A stretch of 64,000 nt of DNA, from assembly GCF_033547075.1 (NCBI RefSeq), contig NZ_CP137891.1, positions 930,001 through 994,000 on the forward strand, read 5' to 3'. This DNA comes from Flavobacterium ardleyense (GTDB lineage Bacteria > Bacteroidota > Bacteroidia > Flavobacteriales > Flavobacteriaceae). This document shows, piece after piece, positions 35,589 to 38,387 of the stretch. Under the pieces are notes generated by a model. That model was given only the letters and a program-made list of their open reading frames with translations, was not told the origin of the DNA and ran no database searches. How positions within the stretch are numbered: position 1 is the stretch's first letter; the number at the start of each line of letters is the position of its first letter. Made by a program: the position numbers and the translations under genes.

Positions 35589-35735
35589 TTTATTTGGGCG
35601 TGCCCTGTTGCACAACGACCTTCCTTAAATTTGAACATTAGTGTAGCAACAGGTCAGGCTTTCCACTCCCAATCTTTCTTGTAGCTTGTGCTCCGCAAAG
35701 CTACAAGAAAGGATTTCCGCTGCAATCCTTCACGC
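35589..35735 (+). repeat. Dispersed flavobacterial intergenic element, copy B
   Basis: It starts with TATTTGGGCGTGCCC, in which GGGC-GT-GCCC is a small hairpin. A TGTTGC/GCAACA-bounded interval follows, then GGTCAGGCTTTCCAC. The central hairpin is perfect: TTTCTTGTAGCTT (35675-35687) with AAGCTACAAGAAA (35698-35710). It ends with GGATTTCCGCTGCAATCC. Orientation is the same as in copies A and C. It lies 22 bp upstream of lepA, antisense to it. Confidence 0.85.
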
Positions 35736-35778
35736 AAACGCAAAGTAACATTCAATTAAAGGTAATTTAAATAATCCG

Positions 35779-36078: not shown

Positions 36079-36084
36079 ATCTGA

Positions 36085-36363
36085 TTAACTATATTTTTCC
36101 TTTAATTTTAAAATCAACTCGGGGGTATTTTAAAAGATTGTGTATGTAAAATTTACTTTTCATATTCTTAATGTGCCTTTCAATTTTTAAACCTTGCTCT
36201 TTACTTACGCAATAATTAGAAAAATATTCCAGTCATTAGCTTTAGCGGTGAATTTATCGGAAGCTGATTTTTTATGATATTCTAAGCGGGAATACAAATC
36301 AGAAGAATAGCCAACATAGAACCTATCTAAATGAAGTGAATGAAGTATGTAAACACAATCCAT
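36085..36363 (-). pseudogene. Frameshifted GIY-YIG nuclease copy
   Basis: From an ATG at 36363 the frame reads MDCVYILHSLHLDRFYVGYSS and stays nearly identical to the ORF at 36550-36831. A 4-bp deletion near 36209-36211 (the other copy has CAATCAATAATT where this one has CAATAATT) then throws it into an early stop after LIIA. The downstream half, including the family Glu region, is still recognisable out of frame and ends in AAATATAGTTAATC, so the original stop codon was again inside the tRNA-derived motif. It keeps the Tyr of the YIG motif. Confidence 0.85.
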
Positions 36364-36549
36364 ATCGCAAGTATTAATAATGGAAAGATAGGGAGGTTTT
36401 TTTAATATTTCTCAACAGAAATTTTTGTTAATTTTTAAAAACAAAAAAGTCCGATATTTCTATCGGACTTCTTCTGTGCTCCCCCTTTCCGATAGTCATC
36501 GGAACAGGCAATTAGTTCGAATCAATCCCGATCACTATCGGGGCTCTGA

Positions 36550-36831
36550 TTAACCATATTTTTCCTTTAATTTTAAAATCATCTCGGGGTATTTTAAAAG
36601 ATTCTGTATGTATATTTTGCTTTTCATATTCTTAATGTGTCTTTCAATTTGTAAACCTTGCTCTTTACTTACGCAATCAATAATTAGAAAAACAATCCAG
36701 TCATTTGCTTTAGCGGTGAATTTATCGGAAGCTGATTTTTTGTGATATTCTAATCGAGAATTCAAATCAGAAGAATAGCCAACATTGAACCTATCTAAAT
36801 GAAGTGAATGAAGTATGTAAACACAATCCAT
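36550..36831 (-). CDS. GIY-YIG nuclease-family protein inside the tRNA-Asn array
   Basis: A 93-aa single-domain protein of the GIY-YIG superfamily. The first motif is VYIL (4-7). Conserved R26, H30 and E63 (QIERHIK) are present. The second motif reads FNVGY, with N16 where the family and the sister copy have Tyr, so activity is doubtful. The stop TAA (36552-36550) lies within the tRNA-derived GTTAATCAGAG: the last codon is GGT and the stop is TAA. The gene fills the spacer of a long array unit. Confidence 0.8.
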   Translation of the reverse strand: MDCVYILHSLHLDRFNVGYSSDLNSRLEYHKKSASDKFTAKANDWIVFLIIDCVSKEQGLQIERHIKNMKSKIYIQNLLKYPEMILKLKEKYG

Positions 36832-38278
36832 ATTGCAAGAATTAATAGTGGAAAGATAGAGTGGTTTTTTTAAAATTTCTCAAGAAAAATTTTTACTAAT
36901 ACTTAGAAACAAAAAAGTCCGATATTTCTATCGGACTTCTTTTGTGCTCCCCCTTTCCGATAGTCATCGGAACAGGCAATTAGTTCGAACCAATCCCGAT
37001 CACTATCGGGGCTCTGATTAACTATAATATATTTGGAATTTCGAATTCTTCTTACGAAAAATCCCACTAATTCTTAAAAACAAAAAAGTCCGATATTTCT
37101 ATCGGACTTCTTCTGTGCTCCCCCTTTCCGATAGTGATCGGAACAAGCAATGGGCTCGAATCAATCCCGATCACTATCGGGGCTCTGATTAACTATATTA
37201 TATTTATATTTTCGAATTCTTCTTACGAAAAATCCCACTAATTCTTAAAAACAAAAAAGTCCGATATTTCTATCGAACTTTTTCTGTGCTCCCCCTTTCC
37301 GATAATGATCGGAACAGGCAATGGGTTCGAATCAATCCCGATCACTATCGGGGCTCTGATTAACTATAAAATATTTGGAATTTCAAATTCTTCTTACGAA
37401 AAATCCCACTAATTTTTAAAAACAAAAAAGTCCGATATTTCTATCGGACTTCTTCTGTGCTCCCCCTTTCCAATAGTGATCGGAACAGGCAATGCGTTCG
37501 AACCAATCCCGATCACTATCGGGGCTCTGATTAACTATTTTATATTAGACTTATAAATATTTCTTACGAAAAATCCCACTAATTCTTAAAAACAAAAAAG
37601 TCCGATATTTCTATCGGACTCCTTTTGTGCTCCCCCTTTCCGATAGTGATCGGAACAAGCAATGGGCTCGAATCAATCCCGATCACTATCGGGGCTCTGA
37701 TTAACTATATTATATTTGGAATTTCGAATTCTTCTTACGAAAAATCCCACTAATTCTTAAAAACAAAAAAGTCCGATATTTCTATCGGACTTTTTCTGTG
37801 CTCCCCCTTTCCGATAGTGATCGGAACAGGCAATGGGTTCGAACCAATCCCGATCACTATCGGGGCTCTGATTAACTAAATTATATTTATATTTTCGAAT
37901 TCTTCTTACGAAAAATCCCACTAATTCTTAAAAACAAAAAAGTCCGATATTTCTATCGGACTTTTTCTGTGCTCCCCCTTTCCGATAGTGATCGGAACAG
38001 GCAATGGGTTCGAACCAATCCCGATCACTATCGGGGCTCTGATTAACTAAATTATATTTATATTTTCGAATTCTTCTTACGAAAAATCCCACTAATTCTT
38101 AAAAACAAAAAAGTCCGATATTTCTATCGGACTTCTTCTGTGCTCCCCCTTTCCGATAGTCATCGGAACAGGCAATGGGTTCGAACCAATCCCGATCACT
38201 ATCGGGGCTCTGATTAACTATAAAATATTTGGAATTTCAAATTCTTCTTGCGAAAAATCCCACTAATTTTTAAAAACA

Positions 38279-38308
38279 AAAAAGTCCGATATTTCTATCG
38301 GACTTTTT
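38279..38308 (-). terminator. Terminator of tRNA-Asn (also the array-unit terminator)
   Basis: AGTCCGATA and TATCGGACT form a perfect 9-bp stem around a GAAA loop (minus strand), followed by TTTTTTG. The same hairpin follows every unit, near 36448, 36914, 37087, 37258, 37429, 37600, 37770, 37941 and 38112. The copy near 37258 has one mismatch. Confidence 0.88.
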
Positions 38309-38313
38309 CTGTG

Positions 38314-38387
38314 CTCCCCCTCTTGGGCTCGAACCAAGGACCCTCTGATTAACAGTCAGATGCTCTAACCAACTGAGCTAAGGAGGA
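38314..38387 (-). tRNA. tRNA-Asn (anticodon GUU)
   Basis: A complete cloverleaf on the minus strand: acceptor TCCTCCT/AGGGGGA with discriminator G, D-arm GCTCAGTTGGTTAGAGC, anticodon arm TCTGA-CTGTTAA-TCAGA with GTT at the centre, and T-arm CTTGG-TTCGAGC-CCAAG. CCA is not encoded. It has its own promoter and terminator, and it is the only copy in the window with a 5' half. Confidence 0.97.

What the first reader, a model, noticed from the sequence alone, without database searches (positions are those of the whole stretch)
36079..38387. Array of nine displaced tRNA-Asn 3' halves downstream of the functional tRNA
Each unit downstream of tRNA-Asn begins at the first anticodon base (GTTAATCAGAG, tRNA positions 34-44), keeps the acceptor strand AGGGGGAGC and repeats the tRNA's own terminator. 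Spacing is 170-171 bp for seven units, 465 and 468 bp for the two distal ones, and 135 bp between the last unit and the real tRNA. Elements that integrate in tRNA genes often cross over at the anticodon loop and bring a replacement 3' half. Repeated insertion would leave the working tRNA at the head and displaced 3' halves stacked downstream, which is the order seen. Tandem amplification of one displaced unit could explain the uniform short units. I know of no description of such arrays.
Basis: partly seen in the sequence, partly recalled or inferred. Interest (0 to 1): 0.87.

Follow-up and report, generated by a model that had tools for sequence, protein, structure and literature searches.

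The report
tRNA-tethered GIY-YIG nuclease element array
The odd row of broken tRNA halves looks like the remains of a small selfish element, built around a tiny DNA-cutting enzyme gene, that sits on tRNA genes in many Bacteroidota; it rebuilds the tRNA, leaves a scarred partial copy beside it, and multiplies into rows.

Summary
The array is real: nine displaced tRNA-Asn 3' halves plus a 10-nt stub. The two long units carry a GIY-YIG endonuclease gene (one open, one decayed), and every displaced half carries palindromic hairpins that the working tRNA lacks. Relatives of the gene occur in 92 of 299 genomes of the genus. Of 130 distinct copies, 112 lie downstream of a same-strand tRNA (eight kinds), 86 within 100 bp. 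Nuclease phylogeny follows tRNA identity with the minimum number of changes (7 for 8 classes). In 91 of 104 units a hairpin follows the gene, typically replacing a class-specific segment of a displaced partial tRNA. That segment follows the nuclease clade even where two clades use the same tRNA. Mirror-image forms with displaced 5' parts exist. Best reading: a homing-endonuclease-like element that enters a tRNA gene, restores it with its own half, and leaves a half scarred at the presumed cut site; arrays grow by amplification within the locus. The window's open nuclease lacks a near-invariant Tyr, so this array looks like a relic. Cutting is inferred, not shown. Ten searches of an open-access PMC library listed no description of such chromosomal arrays.

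The parts
38313..38387 (-). functional tRNA-Asn(GTT), head of the array; promoter-like TATCTTTG just upstream at 38420-38413
   Evidence: ARAGORN; Rfam tRNA 66.9 bits; promoter box scan
38219..38312 (-). terminator and spacer of the functional tRNA; same terminator and spacer type as the short units
38048..38218 (-). short unit 1 (171 bp): displaced 3' half with two hairpins, terminator, spacer
37877..38047 (-). short unit 2
37706..37876 (-). short unit 3
37536..37705 (-). short unit 4 (170 bp)
37365..37535 (-). short unit 5
37194..37364 (-). short unit 6
37023..37193 (-). short unit 7
36555..37022 (-). long unit 8 (468 bp): displaced 3' half with hairpins, terminator, open GIY-YIG gene
36550..36831 (-). 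GIY-YIG nuclease ORF, 93 aa; its TAA stop lies inside the next unit's GTTAATCAGAG; residue 16 is Asn where 113 of 115 aligned rows have Tyr (one other row has a gap)
   Evidence: Pfam PF01541 E 1.4e-8; column counts; structure
36090..36554 (-). long unit 9 (465 bp): displaced 3' half with hairpins, terminator, decayed GIY-YIG gene (match 36091-36363 with 1 TGA and 3 TAA inside)
36080..36089 (-). terminal 10-nt stub GTTAATCAGA, far edge of the array
38191..38206 (-). hairpin 1 of unit 1 (core CCCGATAGTGATCGGG), in the place of tRNA positions 46-50; present in all nine units
   Evidence: class position
38152..38167 (-). hairpin 2 of unit 1, between T-arm and acceptor strand; present, with point changes, in the other units

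Best explanation
The array is a decayed, amplified tRNA-tethered GIY-YIG element. The active form is a unit of about 360-470 bp: a replacement 3' part of one particular tRNA, a terminator, and a gene for an 80-100 aa GIY-YIG nuclease. The nuclease is thought to cut its own tRNA gene at one clade-specific site. Repair from an element-bearing copy inserts the unit there: the element's own 3' part completes the working tRNA, and the old 3' part is pushed downstream behind the nuclease gene, usually with a short arm (about 10-24 nt) of tRNA upstream of the site. In the displaced part the presumed cut site is replaced by a palindromic hairpin, so it is no longer a target and precise excision between the two copies is less likely. 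Cutting or unequal repair inside the locus multiplies units; units that lost the gene multiply as short non-autonomous repeats. SHOWN: anatomy, nuclease homology and purifying selection, tRNA fidelity of nuclease clades, class- and clade-specific hairpin position, mirror-image forms, copy-number differences, loci without the element. INFERRED: DNA cutting, that the hairpin marks the cut site, homing, amplification by break repair. The window copy looks inactive (one nuclease gene decayed, the other lacking a near-invariant motif Tyr), so this array is probably a relic now changing by ordinary recombination.
For: GIY-YIG gene in the long units. Relatives in 92 of 299 genomes of the genus. Of 130 distinct domains, 112 have a same-strand tRNA upstream, 86 within 100 bp; none has an opposite-strand tRNA within 100 bp. 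tRNA class on the nuclease tree: 101 labelled rows, 8 classes, 7 changes, the minimum; 194 labelled rows across Bacteroidota, 9 classes, 22 changes against a shuffled mean of 116.6 (lowest of 50 shuffles 110). Hairpin pattern within 150 nt after the gene in 91 of 104 units against 17 of 104 windows upstream of the tRNA; an exact piece of the tRNA 3' end (8-12 nt) in 79 of 104. Replaced segment: Asn 46-50 (18 of 26), Phe ending at 61 (19 of 20), Leu 72-74 (6 of 6), Val from 29 (14 of 22), Ala from 28 (13 of 15). Among the tRNA-Asn rows printed, 23 of 24 clade I rows have the first hairpin at 46-50 and 5 of 5 clade II rows at 54-56 (clades). Mirror forms: displaced tRNA 5' parts with hairpin and a 10-19 nt arm before the gene, complete tRNA after it. 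Purifying selection: median dN/dS 0.09 over 124 related pairs. Of 29 tRNA-Asn loci examined 28 lack the gene, and none of the 28 has an extra exact GTTAATCAGA outside a tRNA; 25 of the 28 have over 700 nt of downstream sequence. Copy number differs between relatives: 1, 1 and at least 2 units in L046, L047 and L048 (58-type listing, named as L239, L244, L246). Precedent: phage GIY-YIG enzyme SegB is reported to cut in tRNA genes and to be needed for tandem amplification of a tRNA segment (PMC13096335, sections 9, 10, 12 read).
Against: No cutting is shown. The working tRNA keeps the presumed site intact, and the same tRNA-Asn sequence occurs in genomes with the element (G061, G096) and without a hit (G011), so how the host avoids being cut is unexplained. 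The protein is a minimal GIY-YIG domain with no other domain found in Pfam, NCBIfam or PHROGs, so the source of specificity is unclear. The palindromes are a dispersed genomic family (40 sites in this genome, 31 outside the array; present in 295 of 299 genomes), so hairpins could have another origin, and 17 of 104 control windows also hold one. Horizontal movement is only partly supported: nuclease and rseP distances do not correlate over all 23 Asn loci tested (r 0.11, p 0.18) but do within clade I (18 loci, r 0.51, p 0.001), which fits largely vertical descent there. An Asn-type protein found nothing in 50,697 phage records, so a vector is unknown. 18 of 130 domains have no upstream tRNA in the fetched stretch; 8 of these have about 2 kb or more of upstream sequence. 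9 of 104 units show no displaced copy after the gene (read by eye).
Confidence: 0.62

Rival explanations
1. RNA-level system: the nuclease cleaves the tRNA itself at the marked site, and the displaced hairpin-bearing copies act as uncleavable RNA decoys (like an RNA antitoxin).
For: In the Val, Ala, Arg and Pro classes one hairpin replaces another (the anticodon arm), and in Val and Arg most of the rest of the tRNA remains. Some Asn copies keep a nearly whole tRNA (L045, L056, L064). Repeated units recall repeat-type RNA antitoxins (recalled, not from a call).
Against: In most Asn, Phe and Leu copies the displaced part lacks the tRNA 5' half and cannot fold as a tRNA. The displaced copy usually starts about 10-24 nt from the hairpin whatever the tRNA structure (partly cut). 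No promoter-like TAnnTTTG box lies in the window array on the tRNA strand (two lie on the other strand, 37028 and 37711). Each of the nine window units carries its own terminator.
Confidence: 0.12
2. Passive tandem duplication: the repeats are ordinary unequal-crossover duplications beside a tRNA, and the nuclease gene is a passenger.
For: Short units of the window have no nuclease gene and the open copy looks inactive, so present change in this array need not involve it. E. coli tyrTV has 178-bp repeats with tRNA ends and no nuclease annotated.
Against: None of 28 nuclease-free tRNA-Asn loci examined has an extra GTTAATCAGA outside a tRNA (three of them, L016, L031 and L035, have under 250 nt of downstream sequence; the loci were the best DNA matches, not a random draw). 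Nuclease clades are faithful to one tRNA and to one replaced segment. The nuclease is under purifying selection.
Confidence: 0.12
3. One reading: repeated insertion of separate elements, each bringing a replacement 3' half and pushing the older half downstream.
For: Order of parts fits; the most decayed nuclease copy and the stub are distal.
Against: Tandem copies are sister rows in 11 of 11 loci with two or more distinct rows, and the window's short units are 90-99% alike with patchy sharing of spacer variants, including with the tRNA's own spacer.
Confidence: 0.07
4. Domesticated host function: the tRNA-anchored nucleases serve the host (for example against phages carrying tRNA genes) rather than themselves.
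For: Purifying selection; wide distribution.
Against: Patchy presence (92 of 299 genomes), some decayed copies with internal stops, copy-number differences.
Confidence: 0.07

Closest known systems
Free-standing GIY-YIG homing endonuclease SegB of T-even phages
   Same: Small GIY-YIG enzyme beside tRNA genes; reported to cut inside tRNA genes, to be inherited with the tRNA region, and to be needed for tandem amplification of a tRNA segment (PMC13096335, abstract and sections 9, 10, 12 read; PMC2988022, passages only).
   Different: Phage gene; the parts read mention no replacement tRNA half, no hairpin-scarred displaced copy and no one-clade-one-tRNA rule (they report no preference for tRNA isotypes). 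An Asn-type protein of this family matched none of 50,697 phage records at E 1e-3.
E. coli tyrT/tyrV 178-bp repeats (rttR/tpr)
   Same: Tandem repeats of similar length downstream of a tRNA, each with about the last 19 nt of the tRNA.
   Different: Only the tRNA end is repeated; no nuclease annotated; rttR RNA and tpr ORF annotated there. None of the 21 Rfam matches of the window region at E up to 1 is of that kind.
Integrative elements that enter tRNA genes by tyrosine recombinase (recalled)
   Same: Restore the tRNA with their own 3' part and displace the old 3' end.
   Different: No integrase in the unit; units under 0.5 kb; a hairpin replaces a tRNA segment; mirror forms displace the 5' half.
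Group I introns of tRNA anticodon loops with homing endonucleases (recalled; review PMC3984707 seen only as a search listing with the start of its abstract)
   Same: Endonuclease gene associated with tRNA genes.
   Different: No intron: the working tRNA is uninterrupted and no group I intron is among the Rfam matches.
UPF0213 (YhbQ-type, name recalled) and Slx1 GIY-YIG proteins
   Same: Nearest solved relatives by sequence (1zg2 E 2.5e-10, 1ywl, Slx1) and among the best folds.
   Different: Those are known as single stand-alone or repair proteins (recalled); these are tRNA-tethered and often tandem.

Membership tests
GIY-YIG nuclease superfamily | GIY-YIG domain | tested here: met
   Pfam PF01541 35.3 bits, cut-off 22.6; model pLDDT 91.6; 1zg2, Slx1-type and I-TevI among the best folds, though no Foldseek E is below 0.001
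GIY-YIG nuclease superfamily | Conserved motif residues (both Tyr, Arg, Glu) in the window's own protein | tested here: not met
   Window ORF has Asn at 16; among 115 rows Y16 is Tyr in 113, R26 Arg in 114, E63 Glu in 115. So the window gene is a family member that looks inactive
Free-standing homing endonuclease element | Cuts the allele lacking the element at a defined site | not testable with these tools
   Site inferred from hairpin position only
Free-standing homing endonuclease element | Specific to one target locus | tested here: met
   7 changes for 8 tRNA classes among 101 rows; 22 for 9 among 194
Free-standing homing endonuclease element | Empty alleles at the same locus | tested here: met
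   rseP beside tRNA-Asn in many loci with and without the gene; 28 of 29 loci examined lack the gene, 25 of them with over 700 nt downstream
Free-standing homing endonuclease element | Horizontal spread (gene tree unlike host tree) | tested here: inconclusive
   r 0.11 over 23 loci, r 0.51 within clade I
Free-standing homing endonuclease element | Insertion destroys the target | tested here: inconclusive
   Presumed site disrupted in the displaced copy but intact in the working tRNA
Tyrosine-recombinase integrative element | Integrase gene in the element | tested here: not met
   Only ORF of 60 aa or more within the array is the 93-aa GIY-YIG ORF
Group I intron in tRNA | Intron inside the tRNA gene | tested here: not met
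   Contiguous tRNA; no intron family hit
tyrT/rtT-type repeats | Short tandem repeats downstream of a tRNA carrying its 3' end | tested here: met
   resemblance in layout only

The most novel reading that the evidence does not exclude
A Bacteroidota-wide class of chromosomal homing elements that use essential tRNA genes as targets. Each nuclease clade reads one tRNA gene at one site, supplies the missing half (3' or, in mirror form, 5') so the tRNA survives, and leaves the displaced half scarred by a hairpin exactly at the cut site. The scars would be a readable map of nuclease specificity, and nuclease-driven amplification would explain tRNA-end repeat arrays generally.
Probability: 0.45. Interest if true: 0.87.

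Novelty: new variant of a known kind. Interest (0 to 1): 0.8.

Why it matters
It would add a widespread family of very small selfish-looking elements on essential tRNA genes of bacterial chromosomes; tRNA-associated GIY-YIG homing enzymes have been described in phages (PMC13096335, PMC2988022). The hairpins predict cut sites in several tRNA genes (Asn at two places, Phe, Leu, Val, Ala, and with one locus each Pro and Arg), so the specificity of a minimal GIY-YIG domain becomes testable by a simple cleavage assay. It offers a possible cause for tandem arrays of tRNA ends, a layout long known from E. coli tyrTV (recalled; seen). It also warns annotators: hairpin-bearing displaced copies are sometimes called as tRNAs, and many of the gene copies lie at contig ends.

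Tried and rejected
Integrase or intron origin: rejected. Fixed crossover at 33/34: rejected, the start of the displaced part varies. Own promoters in the units: no TAnnTTTG box on the tRNA strand. Phage relatives of one Asn-type protein: none. Rfam identity of the units: apart from the tRNA and a Flavo-1 RNA outside the array, only matches below gathering scores. The first mapping of hairpin borders was faulty because short words also matched the D-arm; it was replaced, where rows without a unique flank count as None (and two Asn rows still map to position 15, the same fault). The first nuclease-versus-rseP test (29 loci, r 0.05, p 0.28) included short, doubtful rseP matches; one search keeps matches of 300 aa or more and at least 38% identity (23 of 29 loci) and is the one used. 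A phylum-wide genome search did not complete, so occurrence outside Flavobacteriales is known only from the named scan, which kept the best 80 of 91 relatives. Literature: ten searches were answered; none of the listed titles or abstract starts describes chromosomal tRNA-tethered GIY-YIG arrays. Only listings were seen except PMC13096335 (abstract, sections 9, 10, 12 and passages), and passages of PMC1564403, PMC2988022 and PMC10448857.

Rows dropped: one search uses only ORFs of 50 codons or more; one search left out domains under about 70 aa and identical proteins, and its 13 rows without a tRNA are not in the class count; one search left out rows with under 110 nt after the gene, repeats of the same stretch and rows with no upstream tRNA; one search printed only rows that passed a filter for Asn-like sequence and a hairpin; one search left 54 of 248 rows without label. 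The output was cut in the middle, so part of its rows was not seen.
Full report
Observation. On the minus strand the array runs from tRNA-Asn (38387-38313) to 36080. Ten copies of GTTAATCAGA follow the tRNA's own. Nine are displaced 3' halves with AGGGGGAGC and the terminator; the last is a 10-nt stub. New: every displaced half carries two palindromes absent from the tRNA, and the first 32 nt of the unit are identical in all nine. Among the seven short units, 7 of 78 tRNA-and-hairpin columns vary, 4 of 35 in the terminator and 18 of 58 in the spacer.

The gene. Unit 8 holds a 93-aa ORF (36831-36550), Pfam GIY-YIG, E 1.4e-8. Unit 9 holds a decayed copy. The ORF's stop codon lies within the next unit's tRNA-derived GTTAATC. 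A 22-row alignment gives a confident model (mean pLDDT 91.6); the nearest solved structures by sequence are UPF0213 proteins and Slx1, with I-TevI also among the best folds (no Foldseek E below 0.001). The window ORF has Asn at residue 16, where 113 of 115 aligned rows have Tyr and one has a gap. One search's paper section reports that the SegB double changes Y17A/G19A and Y17F/G19A have no activity; by the motif I equate Y16 here with Y17 there and take the window enzyme to be inactive (inference).

It is a family. The protein has relatives (E up to 1e-8) in 92 of 299 genomes of the window's genus; the genus is Flavobacterium, judging by contigs of the same lengths in the named scan (for example G061 and L219). 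I fetched the neighbourhoods of the hits listed. Of 130 distinct nuclease domains, 112 have a tRNA upstream on the same strand in the fetched stretch, 86 within 100 bp and 107 within 600 bp; none has an opposite-strand tRNA within 100 bp. Of the 18 without, 10 have under 1 kb of upstream sequence and 8 (six loci) about 2 kb or more. By tRNA: Asn 37, Val 27, Phe 22, Ala 16, Leu 6, Pro 2, Arg 1, Asp 1. Order-wide, 106 of 296 genomes (39 of 90 genera, Flavobacterium included) have hits, some in long tandem arrays: 6.9 copies of 381 bp, 98% alike, with a tRNA-Phe about 1.5 kb away, and 7.9 of 364 bp with no tRNA found in 12 kb. A named scan with an Asn-type alignment gave 80 loci (best of 91), 54 with an upstream same-strand tRNA within 2.5 kb (43 Asn, 5 Met, 4 Phe, 2 Leu), 7 at contig starts and 19 others, in Flavobacterium, Psychroflexus, Salinimicrobium, Aequorivita, Marinoscillum, Labilibaculum and others.

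Fidelity. On a tree of 114 domains the 101 labelled rows need 7 changes for 8 tRNA classes, the minimum (the tool warns of few columns and many unresolved forks). Across 194 labelled rows and 9 classes there are 22 changes against a shuffled mean of 116.6, so fidelity is strong but not perfect at that scale. In the tree the tandem copies of one locus are sister rows in 11 of 11 loci with two or more distinct rows (L048, L055, L058, L069, L070, L071, L072, L076, L078, L082, L083), so arrays grow within loci.

The displaced copy and its hairpin. After the nuclease gene there is typically a partial tRNA in which one segment is replaced by a palindrome of the type YCCGA...TCGGR. The pattern occurs within 150 nt in 91 of 104 units against 17 of 104 control windows upstream of the tRNA; an exact piece of the tRNA 3' end was found in 79 of 104. 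By my reading of the 110 nt printed for the 13 misses, 4 carry a degenerate hairpin (L082, L083, L084, L144) and 9 show no displaced copy; none shows an intact displaced site. Replaced segments: Asn 46-50 (left border 18 of 26, right border 18 of 26), Phe 57-61 (14 of 20, 19 of 20), Leu 72-74 (6 of 6, 6 of 6), Val 29-46 (14 of 22, 16 of 22), Ala 28-44 (13 of 15, 7 of 15), Pro and Arg one unit each in the anticodon arm; the remaining units have another border or none that could be mapped. Within tRNA-Asn, of the rows printed, 23 of 24 of nuclease clade I have the first hairpin at 46-50 (exception L061, in the T-arm) and 5 of 5 of clade II at 54-56 (clades; two further clade II loci, L091 and L093, show no hairpin). 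So the hairpin follows the nuclease, not only the tRNA. Upstream of the hairpin the displaced copy usually keeps only about 10-24 nt of tRNA; some loci keep more (L045, L055, L056, L064, L102). These counts are not independent, because the loci are related.

Mirror forms. In five named loci (L272, L283, L286, L290, L295) a tRNA 5' part, hairpin and a short arm precede the nuclease gene and the complete tRNA follows it; for Arg(CCT) in L286: tRNA 1-22, hairpin, 26-39. L195 and L203 have the same order without a palindrome of this pattern. A unit that can restore either half argues for insertion at a DNA site inside the tRNA.

Empty sites and change. rseP lies beside tRNA-Asn in many loci with and without the gene. 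Of 29 tRNA-Asn loci (chosen as best DNA matches), 28 have no nuclease and none of these has an extra exact GTTAATCAGA outside a tRNA; 25 of the 28 have over 700 nt of downstream sequence, and L037 shows a second T-arm-like word that I did not examine. Three related loci, L046, L047 and L048 (L239, L244, L246 in the named scan), have 1, 1 and at least 2 units. Their alignable flanks are about 85-90% identical, with parts of the upstream gene region that do not align well, and the stretch with the nuclease gene is about 95-96% identical. Overall nuclease distance does not follow rseP distance (r 0.11, p 0.18, 23 loci), but it does within clade I (r 0.51, p 0.001, 18 loci): mostly vertical there, with two clades occupying the same tRNA in related hosts. 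Ectopic units (L264, L247) have the tRNA 3' half, terminator and gene with no complete tRNA in the fetched stretch.

Mechanism. Homing-type insertion at the hairpin-marked site, restoration of the tRNA, scarring of the displaced half, then amplification within the locus. Precedent for nuclease-dependent tandem amplification of a tRNA segment is phage T6 SegB (PMC13096335). Unsolved: why the intact working tRNA is not cut, how a minimal domain recognises a tRNA gene, and what makes the palindromes, which are dispersed in the genome (40 sites, 31 outside the array).

Known comparisons. E. coli tyrTV shows a similar layout without an annotated nuclease. The nuclease is a GIY-YIG protein; membership in the homing endonucleases is plausible but its defining activity is untested. 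I therefore say it works like a homing element and do not file it as a proven one. Purifying selection on the gene (median dN/dS 0.09 over 124 related pairs) shows that intact relatives do something useful to themselves or their hosts.

Noticed in passing
window 35648-35740 (-): Flavo-1 RNA (RF01705), 54 bits, above its gathering score, between the array and lepA.
   Followed up: no
genome-wide, G000 (40 sites): Dispersed palindromes CCCGATAGCTATCGGG and variants, 31 outside the array in this genome and present in 295 of 299 genus genomes; origin unknown.
   Followed up: partly
G000:C1:2241684-2241914 and 2273280-2273510 (L080, L081): Two further, distant GIY-YIG genes in the same genome with identical scores and no tRNA in the fetched stretches.
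   Followed up: partly
L045, L064: ARAGORN calls hairpin-bearing displaced copies as tRNA-Asn of 99 and 88 nt; automatic annotation may count such copies as genes.
   Followed up: partly
L213 (G335:C34): Array of 7.9 GIY-YIG units of 364 bp with no tRNA found in 12 kb: an orphan array.
   Followed up: partly
G172:C1:2412830-2413279: Four tRNA-Asn matches in tandem, 123-128 bp apart, in a genome without a listed nuclease hit.
   Followed up: no
contig ends in G246, G134, G064, G151, G213, G102, G121: Nuclease hits lie within a few hundred bases of contig ends, as expected if arrays break short-read assemblies.
   Followed up: no
L267, L293, L294: Hits in bins labelled Rickettsiales, Actinomyces and Calditrichia; possibly misbinned Bacteroidota contigs.
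   Followed up: no
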